A stretch of 64,000 bases of DNA from Mytilisepta virgata (Eukaryota; Mollusca; Bivalvia; Mytilida; Mytilidae), in contig CM051520.1 of assembly GCA_028015205.1 (NCBI GenBank), forward strand, positions 66,472,694 through 66,536,693, written 5' to 3'. A program made the position numbers and the translations under genes. The notes under the pieces are model-generated. The model did no database searches and had not been told where the DNA came from. It saw only the letters and a program-made list of their open reading frames with translations. Within the stretch, counting starts at the first letter, position 1. Each line of letters begins with the position of its first letter. Of this stretch, positions 34,101 to 61,100 are shown one piece after another.

Positions 34101-37100
34101 TACATTTTAATCTTGGATAAATATAAGTCTTTGTATTATTCATATAGATAAAATCTCTTATTTATATTAATATTTCACTAAGCCTGAGGACGTACATATA
34201 GGTTAATCAAAATTTGATGTTATCTTTTTTTTCTTTTTTTTTCATATTATTTATTCTCTTTTTGGATATCAACACTACATCTTGGTAATCACACAAGTAT
34301 CATTGAGTTCAGAGTTTCATATTCATTAAATGGACGATTGCTTTACATACAACTCCTTATGATCACTAGCCTGTCAAAACTAAGGTTCCTATTTCGATTC
34401 TAAGTCGTTGCAAAGTGTGTTAGATTTCCATTTTAATTGACTAGGATTTCAGAAGTTCTGTGGCTTTGTTGGAATACTCTGGCTTCCCCACCAATAATAA
34501 ATGGCCACAAGAATACAGTCAGTTGCACTAAAAGTGGGGTAAAACTCAATAAACCTAACCAGCCATTTTAATTGTTTTATAATGGATTGCATTTTTTGTT
34601 TGCTCCTTAGGTATATTTATCCTTTTTTCAACCAGGGTCAACTTTTTTCTTATTAAAAACAAATCCCTATATTCAGATCTACCAATAATATCATCTTTAA
34701 ATTTTATTTTCACTTTTGCCTAAGTAAAAGCTTTAAAATCAGCCAATAAAAAATAGGTTCACATAAGACACATATGATTAAATACGGTGCATTTCTATCT
34801 TAAAAATCGTTTAACGTTACTAAGTTACTTTTGCGAACCTTCCATTGATTCCAGCTGTCTTTCTCTTTCACGGAAATCGGGATGTCACAAGCCACTGACG
34901 GCACAATACCGTTGCGCTGCTCTATGCACAAAAACAATTGAAGGATTTGTCTTTAAATTATTTATAAAAAAATTTACTGTAATTGGTATACCGGTAATAT
35001 AACTTTTTTTTAGTGTTATGAAGTTAAAGTAAATCCTTATCAAAAGACATTATTTTGTAAATTATTTAAAAACATTTCTGATGATAGATTACTTCTATAT
35101 TACAGGTACCACACAGTTTATCTGGAGGCCAAAAATATGGGCTAAAAGTTGAAGGTGATGGAGGCCAGTTTTTCAGTAACTGGTCGAGTATCAGTTTCCA
35201 AGCCAAAAGTACATCTATATTAATACAGACAGATAAAGCCATTTATAAGCCAGGACAAACAGGTAAGAATAAATGGCCTGATATTTAGCCACTTGAATTC
35301 CAAAATGAAAAAGTACTGAAAAACTTACTTTCAGCTATCATTAAGTACTATTAAAATGTCGAATTTAAAGGAACGTGTTTTGTTTTCAACAAGAAATTTA
35401 TGTAGTAGTGGCAATATGCTGTCAAAGATAGCTAAATGTGAAGAAATCAATGAAAAACACCGAATATCACTCATTTTTGGACTTTTGAGTTTAAATTTTG
35501 ATATGAGCAATAGCCTTGCCAAAAAAAGATATTTCAATGAAATGTGTTTTTACCCATCATTTTGGGCAAGGCTGTTGCTCATAGTTGTTTTGAACAAAAT
35601 CTACTGTGAAAACTCTCAATTTTCTTAAAATTCTTGATTTAGCAGACTTTCATGACGTCGCTATTGCATTATGGAGAGGAATTATATATAGATTGTGAAA
35701 TTTTGATCATTATATGATGATAAATATGATACAAATTCAAATCTGAAATCTTAATTTTAATTTTTCATCTTGGATGGGGCCAAATAATCGCTGAAATCAT
35801 ACCATCTTCTTTGCTTTAGTTTAACTTAATCAAGTTGCCTATAATAGAAATAAGTTTAACTGTTTAAAGGTAAAATGCAAAGAAATCATTCGAAATTTAT
35901 GTAACTTTCCATCACTGAGAGAAACTTGAAAACTGTAAAAATGACTGTATGTAGATCACAAACTTTCGACAATGCAAACTTTGGTAGAAACTGAAAGAGA
36001 AATTGGGTGCTTCAGAAGTGAAAGACTTTCCATGTTAAACAAGATTTTGAAAATAAAAGAACCAAAAAAATGTGGAAACTTCAAATTTATTCAAATATTT
36101 TAAAATCCATAAATACAACTTTTTAAAGTAAAATGAATTCGAAATATCTTTTATTAATAAAAAAAACGATAAAAAATGTTAAAAATCAAAATATTATCTA
36201 TTTTTATAGTAAAATTCAGAGTTTTGGGAATTTATCCAGATCTGACAGTTGTCAACCAGACTCTCGATATAGATATCCATGTAAGTATGATATATATACC
36301 GAAAATATGTACATTAAGAAAAGATACGTTCTTGAATTTTATGACCGTCATTGGTCAGCAATAACCTGCATCACAACTGTTTAGTCATTTAGAAATGGAA
36401 ATCTCGGAAATACTAATTATTGAAAATTATAGATGTGCAATATTATATGACTTGAAAAATGACCAAGATAAATTGCAAGGTATAGTATAGTCTCCCGTCG
36501 ACAGAAAAATATGTATTCGCTGCTGAAATTCTATTTTTTTTATCCCATTTATGTTTTTTTAACATCTTACATGTATATTATGTAGTAAAAACAGGTATCT
36601 TAGATTATAAAACTATCATTAACTTGCTTGGAATTTTATTCTCTCTGAATAAACTTTTAAATCTATTTATTTATTCTTAAAAAAGACTTTGTAGATGGTT
36701 TTCATTACTTCCTTTATTTTGTAGGATCCAAAGGGTAACAAAATAGCTCAATGGAATGAGGTTCAAGGGCCAAATGGAGTTTATGCTGACCAATTAGTAA
36801 TGTCTGATCATCCTGTTTTGGGTGATTGGAAAATAAAAGTTTCGCAAGGGGTAAGTTAAAAACAACAGTTTTGCAGTGGTCAAATAAAATATAAGCATTT
36901 TACAAAAGGTTGTTCGAACGTCAATTGTTTGGCATTACGATAAACATACATTGTACTTAGTCTAGATGGACTAATTTAAAGTAATTATATAGGAATCACT
37001 TGTCCGTCCGTCTGTCCATATAACTTGTAAGCACAACTCCTCCTAGACCGCTCAATGGATTTCAACGAAACTTTACAGAAAGGAAGTACATCATCCAAAG

Positions 37101-40100
37101 ATGTGCATGAAGAAAAATCTTTGCTTTCCGATATCACACAAGGGAGATAATTGGACTTCAAAAAAGGGGGGTATCCTTTGTGAGCTTTGCTCACAGTACA
37201 TCTAGTTTATAAAGAACAGAAACCTACAGGGAAGGTTTACATATAAGGAATCAAGCATATATGCATGTTTGATTTATATTGGACTTAAACCGGCCTTCAA
37301 GTATAGTTTATAAAGAACAGAAACCTACAGGGAAGGTTTACATATATGGAATCAAGCATATATGCATGTTTGATTTATATTGGACTTAAACCGGCCTTCA
37401 AGTACTCATTATATGATTTAACCAAAATGCATGAAAAATATAATTTGAATTATGTTTTTCCTTTTTGACATGATTTTCTTAATTTTTTTCAGGCGGCGTC
37501 GGAAGAAAAGACTATCACTATTGATGAATACGGTAGGCTAGTCAGACCGTACTTAATGAAAAAGAGGCCTAAAAACAAATTAAAACAGTCTTCTTTTTTC
37601 ACAACTGCAAACATTGCTAGAGTTTTTGTACAATATAGAGGTGCAATAAAGTTGCATGCTATGGTTTCATATAATGTATAAAGAAGGACATTATGGATTA
37701 GTTCACAAATGCATGTGACAAAAATTGGATTAATTCACACGAATGCACATGACAAAAATTCAAAACAAAAAAACAACTATTTTTATGGCTATTCTTCATC
37801 TTAAGAACTGCAAGTTCAAGACCGACCATTTTCGCACATATGTGCATCAAAACTTTACACGTTTATCTGGAGCATAGAGATGTTATCGGGTATCTTATTG
37901 AAATAATCATAGGTAGATGCATTGTTAACATGTGGTCTGTGGATTTTACTGACCAAGGGGAAAATTCTAGTCGTACATAATGAAGAGCAGATTATCAATA
38001 CCCAGAGCTCCTCAATTACAATAATAATTCATAATTAGTAATATTTGTATTATATTTTCAGTATTGCCAAAATTTGAAGTAACTGTTGACCTGCCTCCAT
38101 ATGCACTTACCAAAGACAGATTTTTCTATGTTAACATTAAAGCAAAGTAAGTACCATAATTATCCAGACTATTCTCACCATGCAGTATTAGTCTTAAATA
38201 ATCATTCTACTTTTGTCTCTTATTCATAAGAAAAGAAGACCAAAACCTGACATTTTATATCAAACTCAAACAAGATTAACTGAGATCAGTTCAATACATG
38301 AAATATAAAAATACAATAAAGACCAGATTTGTTTGAACATATAAGCCTGGTTTGCATGACAGACTGACAGTGTCATCTTTTTGTCTAAAAATATGGAAAT
38401 CGATTTAACAAAAACAAAAAGAGTGGATTAGAAGGTCTCTGCTGTTTAATTTATGCATGTTTATATATTGTCAATGGTAATTTCAATGTTCAGTTTTAAT
38501 TAGCATGTTATAAATTGTAAATGACGTGAAAGATGCTGGTTACTAGAAAATTTGTATAATCAAGACAACAACAGCAAAATGGCAGTGTTTTTATCATTTT
38601 TATTGTTAAAGTATTTTAATATTTTTAATAGTTAATTCGAACTGAAGCCTCAAACCCAACAAAATCTAGGTTGACCTTGGCACACATTTTTGATTTAATA
38701 CTGTTATACAAAAGAACAGCTTCTTTGACCTTAAGTTCAATAATTCCATTATTTTGATACTTGTTTTTAGTAATTGTAATTGGATTTTACATTTGCTAGG
38801 TATACATATGGGAAGCCTGTCAGTGGAAAAGCTAATATCAGAATAAAAAAGAAGTACAATTTCAGACCATGGGGGTGGAGAGAAAACCCTGAATTGAACC
38901 AGCTGGTCGATACTATAGAACGATCATTACCGGTAATATTCTTATATTTTTATTAAGATACATGTATGTTAAATGTCCGAAAAATGTCACACAAATAACA
39001 TTTTTTCTAAAAAAATCCACAAATGAACTATTCAGGGTTCACACGGGTGCTTGAAAACCTGGAAAGTACTTGAAATTGAAAATTGGAAATTAAGGCCTTG
39101 AAAGTACTTGAAATTCAAAAGAGGTCCTTGAAACTCCTTGAAAAACTGTGTTTTTGAAGAATAAAAAAAATTGGTTAAATTTTCTGTCATAAAAGTGTTT
39201 TTGATTCGTTTTCAGATCACTCGGTCTCGCGTTTATCGGTATTTTTAAGTTTCGCGTATTTTCCCTTTTCTAAAAATAGCTACTTTTCTGTGAAACAGGT
39301 GCGTAGTAATTTCTGTGATGCGGTCAAGAAATAAATCTGACTGCGTAAAAGTTTTAGTAATTAAACGATCAAGATTGATTTTTTGGTAACTTAAATTAAC
39401 TTTAACTAATAAAACATCTTTCATTTACTTGATTAAATGTATTTTACCGATGAATTTTAGTCACAGTGAGCAAACTGAAACTGAAAGTAGTTCGAAAGAA
39501 CGTTGATGACATGCCTGGGAAATGTAAATTCTGGTCCTTGAAAATTTGGAAATTGGTCCTTTAAAGTCCTTGAAATGTCCTTGAATTTTGTGGTAAAAAA
39601 TGTGTATGAACCCTGACTATTTCTAAATAAAAACATGTTTATATGAATTGCAGTATTTTTGCCCATATTAGTGATATTTTAATGCTGTCCTTTTCAGAAC
39701 ATTAACTGACTTGCAACATTCACCATTTAATAAAAGTAGTTGCATCAAAAAAGGATATCTTTTGCCAGGACTTGCACGTAGGGGAACATTTTTTTGGTTG
39801 CTATGTAAATGACGCTCGTACCATATCCTTATATATATTATATTCCCTATTTTGTAAATTAGAAATTTCAAAATATACGATATATCTATAACATTTATGT
39901 TAAAAACGGTAAAAACAGGTTTAGAAATTCAAGATGTATAATCATGATAATGCTGATTACTATTTAACACACAGGATCACACAATGCTGATTACTATTTA
40001 ACAACAGGATCAGTGAAAGAGTACATTTTAATTATTTTTTAACCCCCCACTCCCACCATAAAAAGTTGGTATTTCAGACAACAGTGTTAAGTTCAGAAAA

Positions 40101-43100
40101 TAAGATAAAAAGTGGTAAATTTAAAAAATGACATAGAAAAGTCAGAGCTTGATTCTCATATTCTTGTAATATTTTAGATTAGTGGAGAAGCAAAATTTTC
40201 AATAGACATGGGTGTAATAAAGAACATTACAAAATACCTGTCGGGGACGCAGTTTGTTGTTGAGGCTAATGTTACAGAAGGTGTAACAGGATTGAAAATG
40301 AAGGATTCTGCAGAAATCCAGTTTTACGAGTCTCCTGCACAAATACAGTTTGTGGAATCCTTACCGTCAAATTATAAACCTGGATTGTCTTACACTGCAT
40401 TGGTAATTATAAATTATATCACACTTCAGAATCTTATATTTACAACATGTGACTGAAATTGTGAAATAGTCTTGTACCAGAATTGCTATTTAGACATTTC
40501 TTCAATTCTAGTTAGATTCCTATTATACATATATTAATTTTATGCAAGAGATTTTATGATGTTTAAATATGGTCATAGAGATATAAATGCCCTTATATAT
40601 AAGTATTTATCTTTAAATTTACCATGATGATTATTGTCCATAATACACACTTTCTTAAATAAAACAAATGCAGAAATTTGTAATAGCAACATTATAGTGC
40701 CACAAAATAGCAGTGATTTGAATCTATTAAATTTTAGTTACAAATGTATAATAAAATGGTTTGACCTTCAGAGAACATGTTTTTTTTTCTTCATAAAACC
40801 AATTGACAAGATGACATAGAAATGTGGAAATCTGCAAATTGTTGCATTCAAATAATAAAACTATACACAACAATCTAAAAATATTGTTTTTCGTAGAAAA
40901 TATTTAATTTCCGTTATTGATATCATTTGACAATGTGATTACAGTTAAAAGCCACACAACCAGATGGAACACCAGTAGTTAACCCCTCTACAAGAATTAA
41001 GGTAGAAACATTCTACAATGTAGAGATTCCTACTACCACGACCAGTACAACTACCACTACGACGACAACAACCCCAGAACCGTACATGGAGGATATGAAT
41101 GCGACGGAAGTATTTGAGGCTGAAATAGTACCAGAAATTATACGAGGTCCAATATGGCACAGATACCCTGAAACTAAACGTGTGCCAATGCCTGTGCAGT
41201 ACTTTGACATACCTCCAGATGGCCTTGTAAAATTTGACCTCGATATCCCTAAGGAGGCAGTATCATATAGCATTGAAGTAAGTAAATACATTTTTAAGTA
41301 GAGAAGACAAAGACTTTAGTTTGTGATAAAATTGATAAGTCTCCCATATCACCTCGATCCAGACAACACAATGATTAAATGTCTCTTTTTTAGAATGTGA
41401 CTTCTTATGTATCTTTTATACTCGGCTTTCACATTTGATCTGTTTGTAAAAAGTATGCAATTTTTTCAGGCACATTATATGAAAGAAATGGCAACAAAAT
41501 ATCTACAGCCTTTCAAATCTCCAAGTAATAACTTCATCCAAGTACGACTTCTGTCAGAAAAACCTACGGTAAGTTATTTATAAATAAGAAAAAAACAATA
41601 CCCATCTTGCAGAACAGAGTACAAGATAAAACTTGATATAATAACCGGTAACAATTTTGGAATTCTTTATTACTGAAAGTCAAAGGAAAGGAGAATTCTT
41701 ATGTTTTACTTCGATGTTTTATTTCATTTTGTAAATTATTTTTTTGTAATAAATATATTGATTTACAGGCTGTTTACTTGAGAATTTTGATCATGTTAAA
41801 TGCATTTATAATTCAGATGTATATGTTATGTATAAAATGTTTGTTTGACGTTTTAAGAAAAAAAAACTCTGACAGCTAGTAGAAGTTCGGGAAAATTATT
41901 GTCTCAAATTTATTTCTGCGCCTATTGTAAAGTGCTAGACAAAATGACAAAACGAGTTTAAAATTTGCCATGTTCTTATCAAAATCACTGTAAATATAAT
42001 TTTGGAGTATTCCTTGACTGTAATGAAATACATGTATTTTTTTGTTGATGCTTAAAGGCAGGAAAAGTGACAGATATCGAAATTAAAGCAACAGAGGCGC
42101 CCGGAACCGTGTATTATCAAGTAAGTATAATTTTATCTAACAACTGATGAATTTGACTTTAGTAAACTGCTTCAATATTAATCAAAGACAAAAAACCATT
42201 TTTGCAGGTTCTTGATAAAGTGTTGTATTGTTGATATTGAAAATATACGGGAAGTCAACTTTTCACAAAAGGTCGAATATATTCTTTTTCTAAAACTAAA
42301 CCAACCAAACAAATGAAAAGCTGATCACTGTTTTCACTTAAAAAAACTATTACATAATAGATACAGAAGGTACACTATAATTACTATGAAAATGATAATA
42401 TTTTTAGTCCACTAGTTGTCCGTAATTTTTCTCGACAATTTTTCACATTTGAAAAGCAAACAACAAAGCAGACATCAGGAAAGGTCCACAATGACATACC
42501 AAGAAATTACCGCCTTCCAAATGACAGAACTTCAGACAAAAGATAAAATGAAGGACACAAAACACAAACTTCACAACAACATAGATTGAGGCTTGTCTGA
42601 CTTGGTACAGATACTGTACAGTGGTGGGGTTAAACCGGTTTTATAGGTGCCCGAACCTCCCTTTTGTGTGTCCCGACCCTCTGGTGTAAAAAACTACAGT
42701 ATGATTACAATACAATTCTTGGATACCAATTTGATGCACAAGATGTGCACATTTCGTCGATCAGTTGTGCTCAAGACCTAAAATGTTGAAAACCAAAACA
42801 ACAATCCAAAAGGTTGAAGAGCAAATTTATAAACACAAAAATGACCAAAAGGGTTAAAGTCAGACCCATCTAAGGACAGAGCTTTGCATGAGGGAGATAC
42901 TCCTTAGTTTTCACAAATTTTGAAATTTTGTAACTGTACATAAAAGGTCACTAGCTATAAATGTTAAAATTATCCCTCTAATAAACAACATAGTCGGAAA
43001 TAAAACTCCCATTAATGTTTTAATGGTATCTCTCATCATTGTGTTCATGCAGTTTTTGTCAGAGGCCACGATACAGTCCTTATAAGAAAGAGCAAATTTT

Positions 43101-46100
43101 ACATTATTACGTAAAATCTCAGATTTTCATCCCTTACTGTGAAAAGATCTTACGGTATTTTGCAATAGACCTTATTATAATTATATTTATTTATAGTTGA
43201 TATCAAAAGGCAGCATTATTAAAACTGGAGAGATAGATATGGGAGCAGAGACCATTATGAAATTTACCTTGCCAATTACAACAGAAATGGCACCAAAGAC
43301 CCGTATGATTGTTCAATATGTGAGACCAGATGGTGAAATCGTCACAGATGGAGTGACATTTAGTGTTGATGGAACATTTAAAAATAAGGTAGAAAGGAAG
43401 AGTGCATGATATTAAATACATTTAGACAAATTTATCTACATATTGTGTATTGTATAAATTTGATAGAAATTTAGTTTTTATCCTTTTAAAAGTCATACAT
43501 TTGTGGTCTGTTTAAGGTGTATCAAGTTCAGTATAATGAATTTATTTTTAACTAATCAATAACATTCAAGATGTCAACATGTCAGAAATTTGAAATTCAC
43601 ACTTTTATGGAATGAAATAGTATCTCATTCACACAGATTATACCCTTTCCATATACAGTCACGTAGGTCTTCTTGGAAATAATAAGTAACGAAAACATAG
43701 AATTTAATCCAGAAACATGCAGTTATCGTAATAAATTGGTATCTTATAAAAAAAAATATAAATTAAGGAACAGAAAAATATTCATGAAATTATACGTGTT
43801 ATAGGTGTCACTGAAATTCATGAAAGACGAAGCTTTGCCAAAATCGAGGATGTTAGTTGATCTACAAGCTGACCCTCAATCCCAGATAAATGTGTTGGCT
43901 GTAGACAAAAGTGTTCTTCTACTGAAGACAGGAAATGACATAACGGAGGATGAGGTATTATTTTTCAGAAAGATAATTTTGTTTTGTAGATTTAGGAGAG
44001 AGACTTTGGTGAAAATGAAGTGATAAACAAACATATTATTTTCATTTTCATGTATTACCTGACATAAATTGTCAGTGTCAAAATAAAATTAGAATGGTCT
44101 TTCTAGATTTTCTACCTATTATGCTGTTTGTTGGATTCAGAAGTAAGCTAGAATAGACAAAAATACCCTGGGAGCAATATTTATTATAGGCCGTAAAACA
44201 AATCCAATGATACTATATACTGCTTGATACAGAGCAATAATACGTGGAGTGCTAGTTAGTGTAAAGTATAAAATTTACACAAAATGGGTAATTTATGTTG
44301 TAAAAATTAGTGTTATAGAAAAAAATTGTTTTCAAAGTCTTTGAAGGAATATTTAAATATTGTGTAATATCCATTTAATCATCAACTAATAATATTAATG
44401 TTTTGTCTTTACACTTTTTGTCCCTCAAGAAATGTTAAAAAAATGGTTTGAAACATGAATATGCATGGCATTAAAAATTTGCATAAAAAATTGTTTATTT
44501 GAAACAGATTTCATTTTGCAAACACTTTTGTTTAGATTACAGAGGAATTACAAAGCTATGACAATGGTGGTGGGGGATATTATCCATACTATGCTAGAAT
44601 GTGGTATTGGCCAAGTACTGGTAGAGATGCAAGCGATGTGTTTGATGTAAGTCTAGAATATTTGGTATTGCTTTTACGCAGATGATGATGATATTTATGT
44701 CTCCCAAACGAAGTTTGGAGACATGTTGTTTTTGCTCAGTTCTTATTATTCTTATTATTATTATTATTATTCTTATTATTATTATTCTTATTATTATTAT
44801 TATTATTATTATTTTTCTTCTTTCCGGGCGCGTTTTTTCGAACACTTGTGTGCACCGTTTCTCATAAACCAATAGACGGAATCGCTTGATATCATACGAC
44901 TTGCTAGGCCCATATTCCTAGATGCGCCTCCCGAAAAAAAAATTTCAATCTGTGGGAGGGAACATATATTTTGGGGGTCTCAAAAGGGGGTGGGGTTTTG
45001 CAAAATTTTACTATAGAAGTCTGTGGGAAAAGTGATATAACTTGATCATTTGTGATCTTAACTTGGAAATACTACCTGTTACCTTGGATATTTAAGTTTT
45101 TATACCCCGCCACACGAAGTGGCGAGGTATTATGTTATACCCTCCATTTCGTTGTCTTAGGGGGGGTCATGCCCCACCCCCTCAAATAACAAAATACTTA
45201 ATATTTTGAAAACCATTGTGATCCCCACCCTATAACCATATATATTATTACTCCTTATGATAAGACAAATCATTTGGTACCATAGGGGGGTCTGAGGGGG
45301 GTCATGCCCCACCCCCTCAAATGATAAAATACTAAATATTCTGAAAACCATTGAGATCCCCAACCAATAACCATATATATTATTACTCCTTATGATAAGA
45401 CGAATCATTTGGTACCATAGGGGGTCTGAGGGGGGGTCATGTGTCAACATATATTTGTTCCTTATAATAAATGTTCTATGTGAAAATAATATTATGGCTA
45501 TATATTTAAAAAAGAATAAACATTACAGAACATAAATTCTCTTCTTATAATAAAATATCCCAAAAAGTCAAAGAAATTATATTATTGTATATAAAATTAT
45601 ACCTGTGTCACACTTCAGCAATTTTAAAACATTTTGGTGATTATGTTGTCACATGATAATGTTACCTGGATGAACATGATTAAATGCATGAACAGATAGT
45701 GTGTAAACAAAATTGAAGGTGTTTTGCCATGGAAGCAGAAGAGTATAACAAAATTTTAAAGTTTTTAAATGAAGGAAAGTTCAATGAAGGTAAGCAAATA
45801 TGTTGATGCTTTCAATTAATTCATTATTCTCAGAAATATAATTATAAGCTATTTATTCAAGAGTCAATGAGTATAAACAATTAAAATGCATGAAAATTTG
45901 TTCACCCCTCTTTATATTAAAGAATATAAAGAAAGATATAATACAAAGTTGAAAAATATTGGACTAGTCTCTGAGCATATATGAGAATCATGACACACAT
46001 TTATAAATTATAACAATTATGACATAAAGTGACATTATAATATTATGACACAACATGTTATAATATTATGAAACAATGTTGTCATTATAATGTTATGGTA

Positions 46101-49100
46101 CAATGTATAATAATATCATGAAATCATGTGATAGTATAATATTATGACACAAAATGTTATAATATTATGACATAGCATGATAATTCCTACATAATATTTG
46201 TTACTTGGAACTTTTGTTATGTTATAGATGTTCTCTGTGGAATATATTTTATATAATATTCATACCTATAGTTGGAAACTTTTATTCTGACTATGGAATG
46301 AATATCATATAAAATATGTTCCACAGAGAACATCTATAACATAACAAAAGTTCCAAGGAACAAATATTATGAAGGAACAAATATCACATGACACATGCTC
46401 CACCCCCTCAAATGACAAAATACTTATTATTCTGAAAACCATTGAGATCCCCACCCTATAACCATATATATTATTACTCCTTATGATAAGACGAATCATT
46501 TGGTACCATAGGGGGTCTGAGGGGGGGGGGGGGGGGGTCATGCCCCACCCCCTTAAATGACAAAATACTTATTATTCTGAAAACCATTGAGATCCCCACC
46601 CTATAACCATATATATTATTACTCCTTATGATAAGACGAATCATTTAGTACCATAGGGGGTCTGAGGGGGGGGTCATGCCCCACCCCCTCAAATGACAAA
46701 ATACTTATTATTCTGAAAACCATTGAGATCCCCACCCTATAACCATATATATTATTACTCCTTATGATAAGACGAATCATTTAGTACCATAGGGGGTCTG
46801 AGGGGGGGGGGGGTCATGCCCCACCCCCTCAAATGACAAAATACTTATTATTCTGAAAACCATTGAGATCCCCACCCTATAACCATATATATTATTACTC
46901 CTTATGATGAGACGAATCATTTGGTGCCATAGGGGGTCTGAGGGGGGTCATGCCCCACCCCCTTAAATGGCTAAAGGGGAGGTGGAGGCCATTGCACCTT
47001 CAATAATAAAATATTTTGATAAAACATCTGTTAATCATGTTAATACCGATTACAACATATAAAACTGCAGATATTGAATACCATATATCAAACATTTTGC
47101 ATATACTCAATCTCTTTGTACACTTGCCCAGTATTTCAAACACTAGGAATTCCAAAAATACCCTGAAAGAGAAAGAGCTTCGTTTGGGAGACATTCGAAA
47201 CTGCATCCAGTTTCAATTATACCTTGTTGTCTTTAATTTACAAGATCAAATTTTTGTTTGTTAGACTTGGATTTGAATATTTCCTCAAATTTATTTTTGA
47301 CAAACAGTACTTTTTGGTTGGTTTTTAGACAGAACTGAATGTACATTTAATGAACTATTATGCATTAGGGACATAACATTTGTAGGGAAAATATATTCGT
47401 AGCATTAGGAATTACGCCTTTGCCAAATTGTTCAAAGCAACTATGAAAATTTTTATGTAACAATGTAATATCAAAATCATATGGACACAAAATGATTGCA
47501 GTTGTGTGTTGTATTACAAAAAATAGGAATAAAGGCAGCAAATACTGGTTCAGGATAGTGATGTTTTTACGTTGTCATTGTAGAATAACGGAATGATAGT
47601 ACTGACAGATGCCGTGCTGTATAGTTATGTAGAACCATGTAAGTTATTTTATAAGCAGATAAAGAATGTCATTGCATGAAAATGAAAAAATTCTGCCAAA
47701 TTGTTAAAATCCAATGTCTTAAAAAAGACCAAGATAACATGGCGTATGGTCAAGTGTACCGCAGTAGATTGACAATTACATGTGTAAATAACCTGATCTC
47801 AGGAAACGTCAATGGTGAAACCACCATCAACTAGCAACATCTAACCTGGACTAGAGGCTACACCCAACCTTTCTGGAGAATAAATAAAGTGAATAAAACC
47901 AAATCGCAAATACTACAGAGAGGCTGGATAGTTAGACTTGGGAGATGGTGAGATGAACTGGTTTTATGGGCAATCTTAATTTCCCATTATATATCCTGAA
48001 AAAATATATAGAATTTTAAAATGTATACTTTCATGCAGTGATGTTCTTTTTTGTGTCAGTAAGAAGATCTTAATACATTTGATGAGGTTTTGGCAATTTT
48101 TGTTTATCAAATCCAGTTTTTCCAACAACAAAAATTTATTTTAAAAAAAATATTCTGATTCATGTAAAACAATTCAACGAGTAAGTCAATATATATATAT
48201 ATAATTATATTATTAAGTATTAATTGGACTACATGTATATAATATCCCAGAGTTAAATAACATAAAAAATACCCAAAATGAAGCGGTATATTTAAATGTT
48301 TCTTTCTCAAATACTGAAGTCCTAAATCAATAAGACTGTAATTTCAACCACTTAGAGCAAATTGGTTGTTCAATATTTCACAATAGTTTAGGTGGTTGGA
48401 CCATTTTTGTTATGTGTTCTTTGACTACAAATGTACCAGAAGGGTACGCTTCCTGAGCTTTAAAAAAAGTCAACCTTGTATATATATAACTCGTTATTGA
48501 AGGATTGTGGGTCATGACTCTATTCATTATTTCATGGTACTGGTGTAATGTATAATAGAAAATATCATAGTTGGGTGTTGGTGTTTTTATGCATCTCTTT
48601 ATATTCTCTGTAACAAATGGATAGCAGTTAATTACTATGTTTTTCGAATTCATAAATTGTTATGAATTAAAAAGTTTTTTCTGACATGAAACTTTCATAA
48701 TTGACGTGATTATACTAAAGTTCGCCCCATGTTAAGAAGAGGAGGACCAGTTGCATTTGCAATGCCAATGATGGTACAGAACTCGCCACCTGTTATGGCT
48801 GAAATGGCAAGACCTGCCACTGGTGACCTCAAACCAGTATCTCGAGTTAGGAAAATATTCCCTGAAACTTGGCTCTGGAAAAACTCAACGTTAGGGTAAG
48901 AAAACATTGACAAAATAATTCAGAAATTTGAAAACTTTACTAATCTGGCAAACAATAAAATATAGCCTTAACCACAGGGATGCACAAGTAAGTAATCTAT
49001 TTTGTCCAAAATATAGAATGCAATGAAAAAAGAAAAAAGTAAAGAAACACTGCATCTTTTGAAGCAGGTAACGTTACTCGAACTCATTTGCGTGACTGGA

Positions 49101-52100
49101 GAATCTTGCAATACGTCTACACAATCGGTTAGTATGATGGACCAGTAAAATTTGCTCATTGTCAGTTTAATAATTTTAATAATGGTATTTTTAATTCAAC
49201 AGAGAAACATAACTATACTCGCAGATAATTAGAAATCATCTCGTCGTGTCTTATATAACATAAATTAAACTCCTGCAACTATTTCTAGAAAAATAACTAT
49301 GAAATCGACATATTTAAATGCAAAGTCTCTTTAATACTATCCATTCATAGGAAAGCTTGAACTATAATTTTGTACTGCTAGGTTTAGTATTATGAAAGCA
49401 TGTTGTTTCAAATTCTTTATTTTATGACTGGGACGGATATCTGGATAATTCTGGTTATATGGTTTTATCATTTATCTTGCTACTTCGTTAATTGTTTGCC
49501 GATATACAAAATTATATATCTATAGCATTACATTGGATATGGCATTTAGACAAATTCGTGAATTTGAAAATTAATATTATACAGCTTCCTATGATTTGCC
49601 CTTTACTTTTGAGTGTTATACAAGGCATACATTTCTCTAGTCTCCCTCCTCTTTCAACCTTCTCCCATTTCTAATCATCATTTATGACATAGATAATGGA
49701 AATCATGTAATTTGTAACTTTTTGCAACAAGCAGTTTATATTTCAATATGATATTATCTCCACATAAGTGATAACGGAACCATAACAGGATGTTTTACCC
49801 TCATGTTTTAATGGAAATCAGACTCCATCTTCTATATGTTTTCCCCAGGTCCTCTCTCCTTTCGTATATATCCCATTCTCCTTTCATCTGTTTCATCTCT
49901 TGTTTCTCCATTTCCTTGTCCCTCCTGTTCTATCTTTCAACCCTCCCCTCAAGTCTCCTAATACCTTAGCTCTTCGACTTTTACCACAATCTACATGTAT
50001 TTCTGTCTTGATATGCTATTTTTTATCAACATAAAATATTTGCTCTACTTAATCAAATTGGCCTTAAATATCTGGCCTGTTCAGTCTTGCCTGTCTTTTC
50101 ACGAAATCTTAATTTTTAGATCAAATAAAAGACCAAAACAAGATTTATTGCCATGAAGTTATTATGGTTCATATTTGATCAGAAAAATTTACCTGTTCTG
50201 AACAGCTGAACATGCTGAAGGCATAAAAAGTGACATTAAATCAAAGAACAGCAATGCTTTTGTTACGTATATGTAGAAAATTGATGTAAAGAAGGAAATC
50301 ACCACATCCCTAGCAAATAATACTCCCATGGGATGGAGAAAACCTTATTGATTTTTTTGTCATAACATGCATAAGGTCAAAGATCAAGGTCACTCTTACT
50401 GAAATAGAATTTTCAGTACACATTATATTTACTATGTTTTCATGGACTGCAATAAAACGTATACAGATAAACCATATATGTTCCTGGTTGTCTTGATAAG
50501 ATGAATTAAATTTTACCATTTTGGAATAATCCCCATCCCCTCCCTTTCACAAATGTTAAAATATTTTGAAAATTGCTGGGATCCACATCACTTAATCTTT
50601 CCCATAATAAAATAAAATAACATATAACATATCCAATCTATTTTACAAAGGTTCATTTATCTTGGAAGCAGTTGAGATCCCAGCTCCTACACCAATTCAT
50701 TCAGTTGATTTGGTACTTTCTGGAGATATCCCCATTCTTAACCATTCTTTATCTACGGCAATGCAATAGATCTTATATTGGTTTTGTAATTGTGAAAATT
50801 TAGATATTGTAAAAATCAACACAGTTGAGATTAAATGGTCGTTATTTAAATTTTTTTATCATATCTTAAAAGCGTGTCAGTTTATTTTATAATTGATTCA
50901 TTGAAATTTTCCTTATTTTAAAGTTGTTCCCATGATGATGAATTCAGTGAAAGTATTCAAAGAGGGTGTACCTGGTCCAAATGGCAACTTTGGGCATATA
51001 GCACCTGTCAGTCGTGTGAGAAAAATCTTTCCTGAAACTTGGATGTGGCTAAATGAAACGTTAAAGTGAGTCAAAAGCTCGGTATCGCTTGGTAAATAAA
51101 ATTGTTATTTGCATGTGGAAGTCAGAAAATTATAAATTGACCTGACATATAACAAACAAGATGAAAAAGATGAGGAATGCTAATTTTTTAATATACATAC
51201 ATTGTATATACATCTATAAGGTAAGATATTTATGAAATACTCCGTGGGGACATCTTCATACAAAAGACAAGCTGAAAATCTTACAGGAGTTAGATCTACA
51301 GCTTAACCTTTATTACTTTTATCATTTGCCATTTTTTTTTACCGTATTGAAGTCGAGTCATAACTTCTTAATCAATATTATGATATATGCAATATTCTTA
51401 TTGTTCCCCCAACCGCTCAAAAATGATCACTAATGTAATTTATAACGACATTATTAAAGACTTGTATGATGAAATCGATGAAGATGACATGGACGATGAC
51501 GGAAATGGAGTCAGTTATAATGGAGAAGTACATACTGATAAATCTGGCATAAAACCGGTTGCCCAAGTTAGGAAGTTCTTCCCAGAAACTTGGATTTGGT
51601 TAAATGAAACTGTTTAGTAAGTTTCAGTGAATGCTTAAATGGACACATAAGGGTGTAACATGATATAATTTGTAATGCCTTTCTATAAATGGCTGCGCCT
51701 TTCTATAGGTTTGCGGTGTGATTGATTGGTTCCAAACAAAGGTGAATGTCAACCTTCAAAAATGTGACATGGACACCTATTTCATTAATTAGAAAGGTGT
51801 GTTCAATCTCCATATAAGCCAACCTAATTTCGACCTTCTCGTAGAGTTTGATTTGTTTTTATGCTTAAAGTTAATATGCTAATATACATTAATAATACAA
51901 ATGCGTTTATTTTCTATGAAGCCCAAATTTTTCGTCGGAAGTGGAACCTCAGGACAAGTAGAGAAGGATTGGAACGAGAAATTATTGCCAAATCCATGCA
52001 TAAAAGTGTAGATCATAAAACCAAACCACAGAATTTAAAACCAGTTACAAAAGTCAGAAAAATATTTCCTGAAACCTGGTTGTGGGAAAGAATTTTTTCT

Positions 52101-55100
52101 CAGTAAGATTTTTTCATGACTTAAATACAACTCTCATATTTAAAAAATCACATAAGACCAAAATTTTGAAAGCCTTAATTCATATATTTCAAAGTTTTAA
52201 GGTCTATAGGTATAAACCTGTCCGATAGTCTGTCCATGATTGATGGAATTCAATGAAACTTCATATGAAGATAGAAAATATGTAAGCATGTGCATAAATA
52301 AGACTTATTATTATCCCAAATAATGACAGAAGATAACCATACAAACACAATTATTTGTATTAAACTCGTCACATGGGTGTGACCTTGGAATTGATCTTTA
52401 CACAAAGGCAGTATACTATCAGAAGATGTGCATGAAATATAAAAAAAATTCTTGACCAGTTATTGTTTTGTATTCATTAAATATTCAATTTGTAAGTGCA
52501 ACTCCCTCTAGAACGTCTGATGGAGTTTTAAGAAATGCATAAATTAGGGCAGGAGAATTATTTGTTGGTGTGCACACAATACCTCTAGATTTTCTCCAAT
52601 TTTTTCTTTTATTATTTTTGGCTTCTTTGAAAAAAGTTAAAATTGAGCATAATTGTTAGTTAAGGGGGTGCATGCGAGTTTGCTTAATGCGAATTGCATG
52701 ATTATGTATACAGCATGACTTCTGCTTTTTGTTATTTATGAAATAATTGTCAATATCATATTATACAGTGCATGTACCTGAACAATTCTTTTTGAAAATC
52801 ATGTACGGCATACTATATGTTGTAATGAATGCATTCACTTATGACAGTGACGCTGTAAGGCAGTCAAAGAAAACATCAATTTTTCCAATAATTTGTATTA
52901 CTTTAATCGATTTGAATCATCTTGTCACTTGGCTGAAAGATTCAATTAACTCATCATTTACACACTAAATTAGATATCCAATCTTGTTCAATATTTTCTT
53001 CCGGAGAAACAGAAACACTTTGCCTTGAATTTTCAACGTGCAAGGCAGATAAGTTTTCTTGTGAAATTGGGTTGCACCAAATTGCTCAAAATGTATGAAA
53101 ACATAAAAAATAATAGCTTACAAAATTTTAAGACAGCACTGATTTAATATTTCCAAACTTACATAATTTTTTTCAGTTTTCACTGCTTTTATTAATATCC
53201 TGTTTGTTGTACAAAATTACAAACATTCAAAAATTAATATAAAGAACTTTTATGTTTGTATGTTTTCTCAGACGACTCAAACCACCAAAAGAATTGCCCT
53301 ATTATTCCAGTACTTCGGGTTTGCTAAAAAAAAAAAAACCAATCCACGAAGTGAGGTTCACAGTGACTATTTTTTTTTTATCTTTTATTACATGTACTTG
53401 CATGGATATCCTGGTTTATTTTAATATGTTGTTTACCTTTCCCTAAATCTTAAAACATTTCTAAAAATGAATAGTTATTTTAAAGTTCAAATTGTATTTA
53501 TGTGGTTCCATACATAAGTCCAAAGTTTCTGATAAGATACAGTTACCAACTCTATTTATACTCACATATATGCTTGTAGTATTCATTTTTGTTCATATTT
53601 GTCCGTTTATAAAATAATTATTGTCTGTTTTATAGTCCCTTACATGATGAACGGAATAAACTTTGCATCAACTGCTTTAGACAGTTTAAATGCTGGATTT
53701 CCGGTTCCAGCCCCTCCCTCCTCAAAAAGTCTAAAGCCCATTCAGCATGTTAGGAAGATTTTCCCTGAAACCTGGATATGGCTGAATAAAACATTATCGT
53801 GAGTAAGATATCACGCCTTTCATTTGCTTGTGTGGGGTTTAGTTTAAATACAACAGCTTTATATTATGCATCTTCACATAGGAAGGCATTCAATAAGGGT
53901 GATATTCAACAGGTAAGGTTGACTCAGAGAAGGTTATTCATTTGTCGTTATGAATTTCTGGATTCAGTCTTTCCATCTCTTTTCCTACAGTCCACATTTC
54001 CGTAATCATCCATTCAATCACCAATTTTATGGATTGTATGTATTAAGGCACGAAAACAACTATATATAATTGGATAAATATTAGCAAGTGTTTTATGCTA
54101 GGGTTTGTCTAAAGGAAAAGTAGGAAAAATAGTCAAAATTTATATAATAGTACTAATGTGGGAGAAAATTTTGCACGCAAATCGACAATGGGACAATAAG
54201 CTGTCAAATGGGCTAAAGGAGAAGAAACAAAATCATTTGACATTGATGCATGAAGCCGAAGGGTGCTTGGTTTGAAAATAATCATTTGTCCTTTACATTT
54301 CATCACCAACCCGTAAGCTGTTCGGTTATGAGAATATTTGCCAAACTATGATCGAAGTAACCATAAATAGGGCAGTCATACAACTTTGACCTTTATTTAC
54401 ATAAGACTTAAGATATAAATGACGTATCTGTATTTATGATTTACATGTTTATCCTTGGACAGATTTGCTACTACATGTATACATATCATATATGAAATTT
54501 CAAAGATTAATAAAATAACATAAATATATAATTAAGGTTGTATTCATATCAGTCTTTCAAAAGGTTTGTAAGGTTTATGTTTGAAAATATTATTTTGAAA
54601 ATAAAACAAATAGTCCACAAAGTAAATATAAACAGGTGTGTTCTAAATATACGGAGCTCAATGTACATTGTAAGTATACTCATCAAATGGTAATGAAAAC
54701 GGTACTTTAAAACACTTAAAAGAGGATGCAATTTATTGAAGGGGATGGACGTTTGTATATGATGGAATCTGCGGCTGGGGCCTTTGGTGGTGCAGGTGTT
54801 GCCGCTGATTTGGCTCCAATAACAAAAGTGCGAAAGAATTTCCCAGAAACATGGTTATGGTTAAACAAAACTATTCTGTGAGTAAACTTCGAGGGGTCAT
54901 GGGTTCTCTGATTCATAGGGCACTCGTAAAACAGCATTAAAATACAGGTTAAATGGAAATCTCCAAAAATATAGAATGTGAAAAAGATCGAACATACTCT
55001 GAAGAAAAGTATTAATAAAAAAAATTAATAAATGCATACTTTGCGAGTGTTTTCTGAAATACAAAGAACGTAGTTTCTGTTCTAGATACATTGTGAAAAA

Positions 55101-58100
55101 CTGAATTCCTGCATGCAATGCATGCCTTTAAATATTTTTATACTACTAAAGTTTTGAGCAATAATTTGTTCAAACATACATATGTATTCAGGAAAGTTCT
55201 ACACCACCTTCTACATCTTCTCATGTTTTGCAGTATATACTTTTGGTGCTGGAGTTTGTACCCACTTGCATCTTCTATTATTTATGTATGCTCACTTTTT
55301 CTCATCTCCTTTAAAAATGGCATCATGAAATTGAGCCTACCGTCAGAATTATGTATCTTTTTCCGGTTTTTATAGAAAACATGTATCAAGGTTTTTGTTG
55401 TTTGTAAAAGAGAGTATTATGTATCCAGTAATTCCAATAAAATATCTGGTCATAATGGCCGACTTAAAAATGTCAATATTAATAAAAAAAGTAATATACG
55501 AGCTTTAACCTCTGTTATGATAACATATAATGTTACTCTTATACTTTGAGATGTATGCTTCTACTTTCATAGTTATTACGTATTAATGCTTTAGATAACT
55601 TCATATATGTACATCCAGTAATATAGTCTCTCGTCATAATGGTCGACTTGAAACAAATTGTCAATATCAGTGAAAGAATTAAGTAATATATGAACTTTAA
55701 CCTCTGTTATGATAACAGATTGTGTATGCCCTTATAGTTTGAGATGTATGCTTATGGCGCATTTATCCTTGAAGTAACTTCATATATGAACATCTGTTTT
55801 CTCTTTTGGCTTAATGTTTATATAAAATCTGGTACAATTCGTAGAAGTTGGCCTGTTTACGCGTACTTTACATCAACTTATCTAACATATATCCTGATAT
55901 GATCATAATAGTTAATATGTTTATGTTTTTTGACGCAAATTGCGAGATTATATGGAGAGGTATGACTGTACTTTTTACTTTTCTTGCCTGTAATATTGTA
56001 TGTAATTTGTGAATTATCCTTCAGCTATATCCTTCAATTCATAGCTGTGACTAAGTTGACATTAGGCCAAGGGCTGCTAGGATAAAACTTATGATTATAA
56101 GCGAGTTCGGTCTTCATGTTGAAGTCCTCGCTATGACTTTTAAGATGAAGAACAGCAATAAAAGAACTTTGCTTAAACTTTCAGGCTATATGTAGGTATT
56201 TGTATTGAAGAATTAATCGGCCATATCCCTTATTCCGTTTAACATGTATAAATGATGCTACATTGAAAGAATGAATTATTATCACGATAAACTTTGACAA
56301 ATTTGATTGAATTTAAAACCAATGCCATCAAGATATATTAAATTCTTTTAATCTATATTTATAAATAGTTTTTGAATAAATGATAGATAAACTAGCATTT
56401 ACACTTAAAAAATATTCAAAATGTACAGTTGTATGCTAACTAAGAACAACCCTGAGTAAACGCGCAGTGAACGAAAGTATATATTTTATGTCAGACCCGT
56501 TAGCATTTTACTTCCCGACAGGTAGGTATAGAATAAGCATTTTACTTCCCGACAGGTAGGTATAGAATTAGAAAAAGGATCAGTATCAAAAGCAAGGTGA
56601 GTATTAAGAAAATGCATGTAAAGTATATCTTCTGTTTATATAGAATTATGCATGTGCAAATGCATATCATATGGCATATCTGTATTTCCATTTTCGAATG
56701 ATTTTGAATTAATTATATTTTATAATTTTCTCAAAGAAAAGGAAAATCGAATTACGACAACACTTAATATTAGTATTGATCATGTTCTCAGTTAAATATT
56801 CTTAATTTACCTTATTTTCTCAACGCCTTTATAGGATTTAAGAAAATTTGCCTTTAAATCACATTTATACAAGTCATAAGCTGTCAATAAATCATATTAT
56901 TTTCTATTTTGTGGTTAATTGTTTCGTTGTAAAATAAATGCATTTTATTTTGTGTGTAGTTAGTTCTTGCTTTGTAGAATAATTGTGATTTGCTCTTTCG
57001 GATGATCTGTAAAATAATTGCGATTCGCTCTTTTGGATGATCAATATTAAATAATCAAAACTCCTAAAATTTGGCATATTTTATATTTTCTATAATTATA
57101 TTTTAGTGATGATGGAAAAGCAACTTTAAATGTTGAAGTTCCAGATACAATTACATCGTGGGTGGCCACTGCCTTCGCAGTAAATCCTGTAACTGGATTC
57201 GGATTAACAGATTCACCTTCAAATGTAAGTCTTATTGCTACTTGTAATTATATATTGTCACTAGGTACATGTACATGTACATGAACATATAAGGACTTTT
57301 TAAATGAAATTATAAGTTATTTTCTTTGTTAACAAATTTAGAGTCAAACATAATGGCTTTACTTCTAATTTTTGTCGTGACGAAAAATAATGAACAATAG
57401 CACATGACACTGACAATTTATTGACTGTAGGTTCACCGCAAAAATAATACTTGTACAGAAAAAAAAATTTATTATGCCACATGAAGTTTTTACACATGTA
57501 AAATAAAATTAGAGTAACAACTTATATATGAAAAAAAATAAAGGCATAAGTATAATCAATGAATTTTGAGTCGTCGAACGATGCATTTAAAAAAAATACA
57601 TCGAGACCCAAAATAGCAATAATGGATCTGTTTGTTTTTCTTAGTTTAAACAATAACCATTTAAATACTGTAAATTCGGAAATTATTGTGACATTTTTAT
57701 TATTGCGATAAATGTGACAGGGTTGTAATCGCAATAATTTAAATTCACATTTTGGATTTTTTTATATGAATGAAGCTTGATTTTTCTCAATATCGCAAAA
57801 ATTAAAATCGCATTTTGGTCTAAAATAACAAAATCACAATAAAAAATGCATGCAATAATTTCTGAATTTACAGTACCAAATACATGTAGTTATTGATTTA
57901 GTTTTACTTCATCTGCATCATTATATAAAATATTGTTTTATATTTCAGCTGAATGTGTTTATGCCATTTTTCATACAATTGGTTTTACCATACTCTGTTG
58001 TCAGAGGAGAATTGGTAGTATTACAAGTGAACATTCATAATTATCTCCGTGAAACTGAATGGGTAAGTAACTATGCGACAGCAAAATGACACGAAAATGT

Positions 58101-61100
58101 ATGGTTAAGTAACTATGTGAAAGCAAAATGACATGGAAATTTATGGGTAAGTAACTATGCGACAGCAAAATGACACGAAAATGTATGGGTAAGTAACTAT
58201 GCGACAGCAAAATGACACTAAAATGTATGGTTTAGTAACTATGCAAAAGCAAAATGACACAGAAATTTATGGATAAGTAACTATGCGACAGCAAAATGAC
58301 ACGGAAATTTATGGGTAAGTAACTTTGCAACAGCAAAATGACACAAATACAGCAGAGACTTCCTAACAGCAGAAATTTGATTAAAAATGCATAACTAGAT
58401 ACCAAAATATAATGTTTTAATTCGACTTTGAAATTTTTCATTACATGTTGTACTATTATGTATATAAATTTTCTTATTTATTGTCACAAAAATGTTTATT
58501 TTTTTTCAATCCTGACAAATAAAATTTGTACATTTTTACATGTTTTCTCTCCATTATAGGTATTAGTCATTTTAGAACAAAATAATGGTATGAAAAACGT
58601 AATAACATACAGTAATGGAAATCAGATGCTTAGAAAACGGTCACATGCAAAGGTTGGAAGATGGCTAAAGGTAGGCTATAGTTAATTCTGTAATAACAAT
58701 TTGGTTCACAAGATATACACATTTCGCCGATTTACTACTCATCTGTTGTGTTGAAGGGCTAAAATTCTAAAAGCCAAAATAATAATTCAAATCTTTTGAA
58801 GAGCAAATTCAAAATGTGTACCAAAAAATGATAAAAAGCGTTAAGCCAAAGCCATCTAGAATATGCTTATATATGTGCGAAATGCTAGCATTTGAAATTA
58901 TGTATAACCTTATTCAGTGGGGAATGCAACAGACAAAAACTTAAAAATATTTCTTGAATGCTTATGTTTGAATGGTTGAAGTATAGTTAGTGAAAAATTC
59001 CATGTTAACATTATTTTATTTGAATTTCAGATACCAAAAGGTGGAATAGGATCTGCGTTTTTTCCAGTTGTTCCCATGGAAGTAGGACAGTTGAAGATTG
59101 CTGCTAGTGCAAGAACAACGGACGCTTCAGACGCAATTGAAAAGACATTACTTGTAGAGGTATATATCTTTGACATTATAAAATGAATTCTCAGTGTCCC
59201 TTGTGTTTTCCCCCTTACTTTTTTTTTAGGTTGTCACCGTGGCATAACATTATAATCGTCATGCTTTGTATGCTAGGCGGAGTTGCCGTAAGGGGTCTCA
59301 GAGACTTCAATAAATAAAATTAAACTCATACGGACGTCCGCTGGTTGAAAAAGATGTAAAATCACTGCCTTGGATTGATCCTATATCTAGAGAATTTAAA
59401 ACTACAGCCTAAAAACACAAGACTTCCTGTGTGTGCAAAGCATGACGTTTATAAGTACGTCATAGGAACAACTATTTTTTAGGTTGTCACCGTGGCGTAA
59501 CGTTATAATCGTCATGCTTTGTATGCTAGGCGGAGTTGCCGTAAGGGGTCTCAGAGACTTCAATAAATAAAATTAAACTCATACGGACATCCGCTGGTTG
59601 AAAAAGATGTAAAATCACTGCCTTGGATTGATCCTATATCTAGAGAATTTAAAACTACAGCCGAAAAACACAAGACTTCCTGTGTGTGCAAAGCATGACG
59701 TTTATAAGTACGTCATAGGAACAACTATTTTTTAGGTTGTCACCGTGGCGTAACGTTATAATCGTCATGCTTTGTATGCTAGGCGGAGTTGCCGTAAGGG
59801 GTCTCAGAGACTTCAGTAAATAAAATTAAACTCATACGGACGTCCGCTGGTTGAAAAAGATGTAAAATCACTGCCTTGGATTGATCCTATATCTAGAGTA
59901 TATATATATATATAAAAGTCTATAAAAAAGACCAACCAGCAAATTTAATATGTACCGGATAGTCTAGAATAGACGATAACTGTGCAGATAAGGAAATAAT
60001 TATATAAGTCTAAAGATTTGCACAACGGTACTAATATAAGATGGTAATATACTAAGATGATGTTATAAAATCGTGTTGACAAATATTACGACTTAACAAA
60101 TAGCCTTCGTCAGTGTCGATAGTTTTTGTCTCGCCTGCGACGAAAGTCGCTGGAAGCGAGACATAGGTATAGCAATCCGGCGGCGACGGCGAAGGCGACG
60201 GCGACGGCGTTAACTTTTTGTAAAACCTTAATAACTTTTAAAGTATAATACTTACAATGTTCATCTTTGGTCCACAGGTGCATGAAGTGATGACCTTTTC
60301 AGCAGCACATTTTTAGATGACCTTGACCTTTTTTTCATGGTTCAATACCCACATAAACATTGCGACATAGTTTTACATTCAAATCCTTTTCTCAGAAACT
60401 ATAATACCTAGAGTTATTATATTTGGTCTACAGTGAGATCTATATGGGTACATGCCAGTCTGACACCTGTCATTTGTCCTTGACCTCAATTGCACGGTTC
60501 AGTGAACTTCGAAAATCTGCGACATAGTTTTACATTCAAGTCCCTTTCTTAGTAACTGTAATGTTTAGAGTCATCATATTTGGTATATAGTAAGATCTAT
60601 ATGGGTACATGGGAGTCTGACACCTGTCATGTGTCCTTGACCTCAATTTCACAGCTCAGTGACTTTGTCAATTTTTTCTTCTAAAGTCCATTTTTCTGCA
60701 ACTACAATGAATAGACTCATCATACATGGCTTATAGCAAGATCTGTATGGGTACATGCCAGTCTGACACCTTTCATGTGCCCTTGACCTCAATTTCATGG
60801 TTCAGTGACTTTGTCAATTTTTTCCTCAAAAGTTTATATTTCAGCAAGTGCAATGACTAGATTCATCAGATATGGTCTATAGCTAGATCTATATGGGTAC
60901 ATGCCAGTCTGACACCTGTCATGTGTCCTTGACCTCAATTTCATGGTTCAGTGACTTTGTCAATTTTTTTCTTTAAAGTCTATTTTACAGCAACTACAAT
61001 GAATAGACTCATCATACATGGCTTATAGCAAGATCTGTATGGGTACATGCCAGTCTGACACCTTTCATGTGCCCTTGACCTCAATTTCATGGTTCAGTGA

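What the first reader, a model, noticed from the sequence alone, without database searches (positions are those of the whole stretch)
47584..57224. Six mutually exclusive bait-region exons with a frame lock
Exons A-F (lengths 175, 142, 157, 181, 163, 136) all enter in phase 1, leave in phase 2 and have length 3n+1. The flanking constant exons end in phase 1 and start expecting phase 2. Using none or two cassettes therefore shifts the frame, and only one (or four) preserves it. Each cassette carries its own bait sequence plus a conserved VRKxFPETWxW module, so one gene can make at least six protease-sensing or trapping proteins. Alternative bait exons are known in Drosophila Tep2 and have been reported for a scallop TEP. 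The introns between cassettes (about 305-2030 nt) are too long for steric exclusion, so frame-dependent decay or RNA pairing is the likelier control.
Basis: partly seen in the sequence, partly recalled or inferred. Interest (0 to 1): 0.9.

Follow-up and report, generated by a model that had tools for sequence, protein, structure and literature searches.

The report
Mussel immune gene with swappable baits
A shellfish immune gene carries six interchangeable copies of the short stretch that proteases cut, and its reading frame makes sense only if exactly one copy is used; this resembles arrangements already reported in a scallop and a snail, here in a different gene copy.

Summary
Six exons (48721-54877) each encode a bait region plus the VRKxFPETWxW module, all 3n+1 nt long with identical phases, between constant exons 47584-47638 and 57107-57224 of a CD109-like thioester gene. 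All six single-cassette isoforms are open; 21 of 21 constitutive exon starts align without gaps to a Mytilus trossulus protein (74% identical).

The frame lock is stricter than stated: all 58 other sets, four cassettes included, meet a stop. Codon permutation shows this needs no selection. The module matches the A2M-family trigger plug, so each cassette carries its own trigger.

A docking/selector RNA-pairing scan was inconclusive. A new clue: AAG acceptors in 5 of 6 cassettes against 1 of 21 constitutive exons (post hoc).

Tandem mutually exclusive bait exons are known (snail BgTEP2, twelve; scallop CfTEP, six; fly Tep2, five isoforms). This gene lies in a different, supported clade from CfTEP. 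Bait A is recognisable in mussel and oyster relatives; B-F in none of 115 proteins compared. No transcript was found; use of each cassette and its protease targets are inferred. New member of a known kind.

The parts
33882..44646 (+). Fourteen upstream constitutive exons (MG1-MG6a) of a CD109-like thioester protein: 33882-34065, 35106-35262, 36210-36280, 36725-36850, 37493-37532, 38062-38146, 38800-38932, 40178-40402, 40945-41277, 41470-41568, 42058-42120, 43197-43388, 43805-43954, 44536-44646. Signal-peptide exon not located.
   Evidence: phase-consistent, open; starts align without gaps to P0001; Pfam MG2, MG3, A2M_BRD
47584..47638 (+). Upstream constant exon NNGMIVLTDAVLYSYVEP, leaves 1 nt
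48721..48895 (+). Cassette A, 175 nt, acceptor AAG; bait FRPMLRRGGPVAFAMPMM...
   Evidence: matches Mytilus trossulus P0001 and Crassostrea virginica P0007 above null
50924..51065 (+). Cassette B, 142 nt, acceptor AAG
51460..51616 (+). Cassette C, 157 nt, acceptor AAG; acidic bait (11 D/E, 2 K/R of 31)
51922..52102 (+). Cassette D, 181 nt, acceptor AAG; basic bait (11 K/R, 4 D/E of 39)
53636..53798 (+). Cassette E, 163 nt, acceptor TAG
54742..54877 (+). Cassette F, 136 nt, acceptor AAG; Asn where the others have Ile or Phe in the plug (KNFPETW)
57107..57224 (+). Downstream constant exon DDGKATLNVEVPDTITSW..., needs 1 nt
57949..63334 (+). Five further constitutive exons: 57949-58062, 58560-58670, 59031-59159, 62598-62736 and the thioester exon 63158-63334 (PYGCGEQNML). 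Gene continues beyond the window.

Best explanation
This is a CD109-like thioester (alpha-macroglobulin family) gene of a mytilid-like bivalve with six mutually exclusive bait exons. Each exon supplies a different protease-cleavable bait and its own copy of the conserved plug (R-x-x-F-P) that, in A2M-family proteins, sits in a channel and retracts on cleavage to fire the thioester. So one constant body can be armed with six triggers. Exactly one cassette gives a full protein; every other combination is truncated (shown on sequence), presumably degraded by nonsense-mediated decay (inferred). Choice of cassette probably rests on the weak AAG acceptors of most cassettes plus unidentified regulators: once one cassette is joined, its donor should prefer the stronger TAG acceptor of the constant exon, so doubles are rare and the main leak should be zero-cassette RNA, which the frame lock removes (inferred, about 0.35).
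For: Cassettes, phases and open isoforms; stop in all 58 non-single sets; Pfam MG2, MG3, A2M_BRD, A2M and TED above cut-off, GCGEQ present; nearest solved structure to the relative P0001 is human CD109 8s3o, whose bait aligns with the cassette position; A2ML1 plug residues R730, F733 and P734 correspond to R, F and P in 6 of 6 cassettes (PMC9156758 passages); purifying pattern on the module; Pinctada relative P0006 in the same clade holds two cassette-like stretches in one prediction; AAG acceptor in 5 of 6 cassettes against 1 of 21 constitutive exons, Fisher p=4e-4, post hoc, with the constitutive starts checked against the relative.
Against: No transcript of this gene was found: the two fragment searches listed nothing near-identical in their best 120. 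Only cassette A has a recognisable relative; B-F have none above null in the 115 of 120 listed proteins that gave a bait segment, and those records are one per 90% cluster. AAG acceptors may simply be inherited from one ancestral exon, and the comparison was chosen after looking. Cassette pyrimidine tracts are not significantly weaker (p=0.15). Weak acceptors alone would also favour skipping every cassette. NMD was not tested. Cassette F has Asn at the hydrophobic plug position.
Confidence: 0.78

Rival explanations
1. Cassette choice is made by competing RNA pairing (a docking site pairing with one of several selectors), as in insect Dscam.
For: PMC6071210 (abstract and passages) calls this the major mechanism; the right-intron best worst-case pairing energy (-16.9) was lower than all 12 shuffles (-16.1 to -14.3).
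Against: Best mean pairing energies lie within shuffles on both sides (left -19.6 vs null best -21.5; right -18.5 vs -19.0), and the left worst-case (-16.2) is within null. Upstream flanks score below null and the best downstream pair equals the 95% null value (32 vs 32). One species, so power is low.
Confidence: 0.3
2. Only one or a few cassettes (such as A) are used; the others are decaying or rarely used duplicates.
For: Only A is recognisable in other species; no transcripts seen for B-F.
Against: All six are open, with GT-AG splice sites and a module under purifying selection; no decayed cassette is recognisable in the window.
Confidence: 0.15
3. The truncated zero-cassette RNA is itself a product (a secreted N-terminal fragment), not merely waste.
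For: Scallop CfTEP has seven isoforms from six exons (PMC7016707); that the seventh lacks the variable region is recalled, from no call.
Against: The zero form stops 7 codons into the constant exon, with at least five exons downstream, so it should be NMD-sensitive (inference).
Confidence: 0.12
4. Cassettes change where or how the protein is activated or processed rather than which protease cuts it.
For: Cassettes C (net -9) and D (net +7) differ sharply from the other four baits (net -2 to +3).
Against: Position and plug match bait regions of known protease traps.
Confidence: 0.15

Closest known systems
BgTEP2 of Biomphalaria glabrata (PMC7016707, passages and section 13)
   Same: Tandem mutually exclusive exons encoding the variable cleavage region with a conserved C-terminal part
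   Different: Twelve exons, gastropod; transcripts seen there, none here. The Biomphalaria proteins in my tree (P0112, P0113) fall outside this clade, but which TEP they are was not established
CfTEP of the scallop Chlamys (Azumapecten) farreri
   Same: Six mutually exclusive exons (as cited in PMC7016707)
   Different: Different paralogue: 44-46% identical, in a different supported clade; the genus Mytilus has members of both clades (P0001 M. trossulus, P0045 M. edulis)
Drosophila Tep2
   Same: Five isoforms by alternative bait exon 5 (as cited in PMC7016707)
   Different: Insect TEP; phases not compared
Mytilus trossulus CD109-like isoform X2 (P0001)
   Same: 74% identical; A-type bait; same constant body
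   Different: Protein record only; its cassette number and phases were not seen
Human CD109 (PDB 8s3o) and A2ML1
   Same: Domain order, thioester, bait followed by the R-x-x-F-P plug
   Different: One bait in the aligned CD109 chain; human CD109 is GPI-anchored (start of the PMC7960916 abstract, listing), whereas the relative P0001 ends in a Cys-rich tail with no hydrophobic anchor by eye

Membership tests
A2M/TEP superfamily, CD109-like | MG domains, A2M and TED domains above curated cut-off | tested here: met
   TED cut by the window end
A2M/TEP superfamily, CD109-like | Thioester GCGEQ | tested here: met
   63158-63334
A2M/TEP superfamily, CD109-like | Channel plug R-x-x-F-P after the bait | tested here: met
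   6 of 6 cassettes; defined in PMC9156758 (passages)
CD109 sensu stricto | GPI anchor at the C-terminus | not testable with these tools
   C-terminus lies beyond the window; relative P0001 shows no hydrophobic tail by eye
Tandem mutually exclusive bait-exon TEP genes | Tandem exons of equal phase, variable bait, conserved C-terminal module | tested here: met
Tandem mutually exclusive bait-exon TEP genes | One exon per transcript | not testable with these tools
   No transcripts found
Docking/selector RNA-pairing clusters | Common docking site complementary to several introns | tested here: inconclusive
   three of four measures within 12 shuffles, one just beyond
Steric-interference exclusion | Donor to branch point under about 50 nt (criterion from PMC5740500 passages) | tested here: inconclusive
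   Shortest intron between cassettes 305 nt, so simple steric exclusion is unlikely; branch points were not predicted, and distant ones exist elsewhere (PMC7969005, abstract start listing)
U2/U12 incompatibility | Mixed spliceosome types | tested here: not met
   All 27 exons GT-AG; cassette donors gtaag or gtgag

The most novel reading that the evidence does not exclude
A frame lock can enforce 'exactly one' in a cluster of more than three exons, contrary to the published statement that decay cannot serve clusters of more than three exons, because out-of-frame reading of the next cassette meets a stop before a fourth could restore the frame. Together with retained weak AAG acceptors, this could let bait cassettes multiply freely without a dedicated pairing system.
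Probability: 0.3. Interest if true: 0.6.

Novelty: new member of a known kind. Interest (0 to 1): 0.42.

Why it matters
It adds a second bivalve TEP paralogue with tandem baits, which suggests that swappable triggers are a recurring solution in molluscan immunity. It gives a clean test case for how 'exactly one' is enforced in large exon clusters, and it separates a bait shared by a mussel and an oyster relative (A) from five with no relative recognised here.

Tried and rejected
RNA docking/selector scan: three of four measures within 12 shuffles per side, one slightly beyond; left inconclusive. Intron-flank similarity: upstream below null, the best downstream pair (A-F, 32) equal to the 95% null. 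Pyrimidine-tract weakness: not significant. Search for a seventh or relic cassette: none recognisable. Selection for hidden stops: rejected, because codon permutation gives a stop in all 15 pairs and all 15 four-sets in 2000 of 2000 trials. Transcript fragments of the same species: none near-identical among the best 120 listed of 169 and of 438 hits; one search used five of the six isoforms, A left out. Rfam: no match in the window at gathering threshold. Paper searches: nine were answered. In the listings (titles and abstract starts, open-access library only) I saw no account of this gene in mussels. PMC13428168 was checked by term and does not hold the word thioester.

AAG bias check: my acceptor score penalises A at -3, so constitutive starts were re-checked against P0001. 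All 21 align without a gap; the junction of cassette A shows a gap close by in the bait. Against the pattern: one of six cassettes (E) has TAG, and one of 21 constitutive exons (42058) has AAG.

It also called an unnamed record (P0010) an oyster and marked steric exclusion as not met; both are changed.

Full report
What is there. The window carries, on the + strand, most of a large secreted-type protein gene of the alpha-2-macroglobulin family. I built a gene model from open frames and splice sites. It has 15 upstream constitutive exons from 33882 to 47638, six cassettes between 48721 and 54877, and six downstream exons from 57107 to 63334, the last with the thioester motif GCGEQ. The signal-peptide exon was not located and the 3' end lies beyond the window. 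Pfam finds MG2, MG3, A2M_BRD, A2M and TED above their cut-offs (MG4 is just above for the whole protein but has no passing stretch).

The cassettes. A profile of the six finds those six and nothing else significant in the whole window. All six single-cassette isoforms are open. Over the 20-codon module, third positions vary most in 15 of 15 pairs, dN is 0.15 to 0.45, and dS is 1.2 to 3.2 in 7 pairs and not calculable in 8, so the module is under protein-level constraint. The baits differ in length and charge: C is acidic (net -9), D is basic (net +7), and A, B and F are rich in Ala, Gly, Met, Pro and Val (0.58 to 0.62; E 0.42).

The lock. Of the 58 other sets, 56 stop in the second cassette, C-F stops at its junction, and zero stops 7 codons into the constant exon. 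Codon permutation gives a stop in all pairs and all four-sets in 2000 of 2000 trials, so the result follows from composition and needs no selection. [quoted passage not shown] this cluster shows that length alone does not settle it. A lock of this type is common: 60% of human mutually exclusive clusters contain exons not divisible by three (PMC5740500, passages).

What a cassette does. In A2ML1, residues R730 to P734, just after the bait, form a plug in a channel, and the authors propose that cleavage of the bait lets the plug retract and starts the change that fires the thioester, as a general feature of the family (PMC9156758, passages). The VRKxFPETWxW module holds the equivalent R, F and P in 6 of 6 cassettes; the position before F is Ile in four, Phe in C and Asn in F. 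In the alignment of the relative P0001 with human CD109 (8s3o) the cassette stretch faces the CD109 bait. So each cassette is a complete trigger, bait plus plug. That different baits sense different proteases is inferred, not shown.

How one is chosen. The shortest intron between cassettes is 305 nt and all 27 exons have GT-AG borders, so simple steric exclusion and U2/U12 incompatibility are unlikely; distant branch points were not tested. A scan for a common docking site gave three of four measures within 12 shuffles and one slightly outside: inconclusive. Intron flanks have diverged. Five of six cassettes have an AAG acceptor against one of 21 constitutive exons (Fisher p=4e-4, post hoc). 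That AAG is a weaker acceptor than CAG or TAG is recalled. Weaker splice sites of mutually exclusive exons are part of the docking/selector model (PMC6071210, passage). I propose that weak acceptors limit double inclusion, that zero-cassette RNA is the main leak, and that the frame lock disposes of it.

Relatives. In a tree of 31 rows the window and M. trossulus group with scallop, pearl oyster and oyster proteins (10 rows, 100/99), apart from scallop CfTEP and the two Biomphalaria proteins (in a 15-row group, 100/99); the root is for drawing only. Bait A matches M. trossulus and C. virginica above the 95% null (72 and 67 against 51). P0010 (unnamed, 50), Saccostrea (46), Ostrea (43) and Potamilus (43) do not exceed it, though the first three share the PMLRRMGGPV stretch with C. 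virginica. B to F match nothing above null in 123 segments from 115 of the 120 listed proteins; five proteins gave no segment. Records are clustered at 90%, so other isoforms may be hidden. Of 356 proteins fetched, six gene predictions contain two or three copies of the motif, which I read as fused cassettes: Pinctada (same clade), Haliotis cracherodii, the chiton Liolophura, Tegillarca, Branchiostoma and Mytilus coruscus (names).

Novelty. Tandem mutually exclusive bait exons are published for BgTEP2 (12) and, as cited there, CfTEP (6) and fly Tep2 (5 isoforms) (PMC7016707, passages and section 13). This is a new member of that kind in another paralogue, with two modest additions: an exhaustive demonstration of the lock and the AAG acceptor signature.

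Noticed in passing
window 58051-58344: Seven copies of a 42-nt tandem repeat begin at the donor of exon 57949-58062, so the intron carries several near-copies of that 5' splice site; using one would read into an in-frame stop.
   Followed up: partly
window 46394-46969: G-rich 136-140 nt tandem repeats (about 4 copies, 95% alike) in the intron before constant exon 47584; a similar array lies at 45154-45441.
   Followed up: no
window 22673-23997: 167/333-nt tandem array about 1.3 kb long in a stretch of higher GC (0.40) than the rest of the window.
   Followed up: no
window 59222-59898, 60370-61166 and 61990-62291: Three further tandem arrays (253 nt at 98%, 146 nt at 83%, 146 nt at 92%) in the intron 59160-62597.
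   Followed up: no
window 13482-14030: Open frame matching Pfam Hisat_C (histidine N-acetyltransferase, C-terminal; E 1.6e-12), a likely neighbouring gene upstream.
   Followed up: partly
window 40945-41277: Exon with a threonine run (TTTTSTTTTTTTTTT) giving a mucin-like linker; the Mytilus and oyster relatives have similar runs.
   Followed up: no
P0132, P0334, P0339: Metagenome proteins labelled Dehalococcoidia or Dehalococcoidales with A2M domains appear among hits to the bait-region queries.
   Followed up: no
window 56502-56568: Perfect 34-nt tandem duplication in the intron after cassette F.
   Followed up: no
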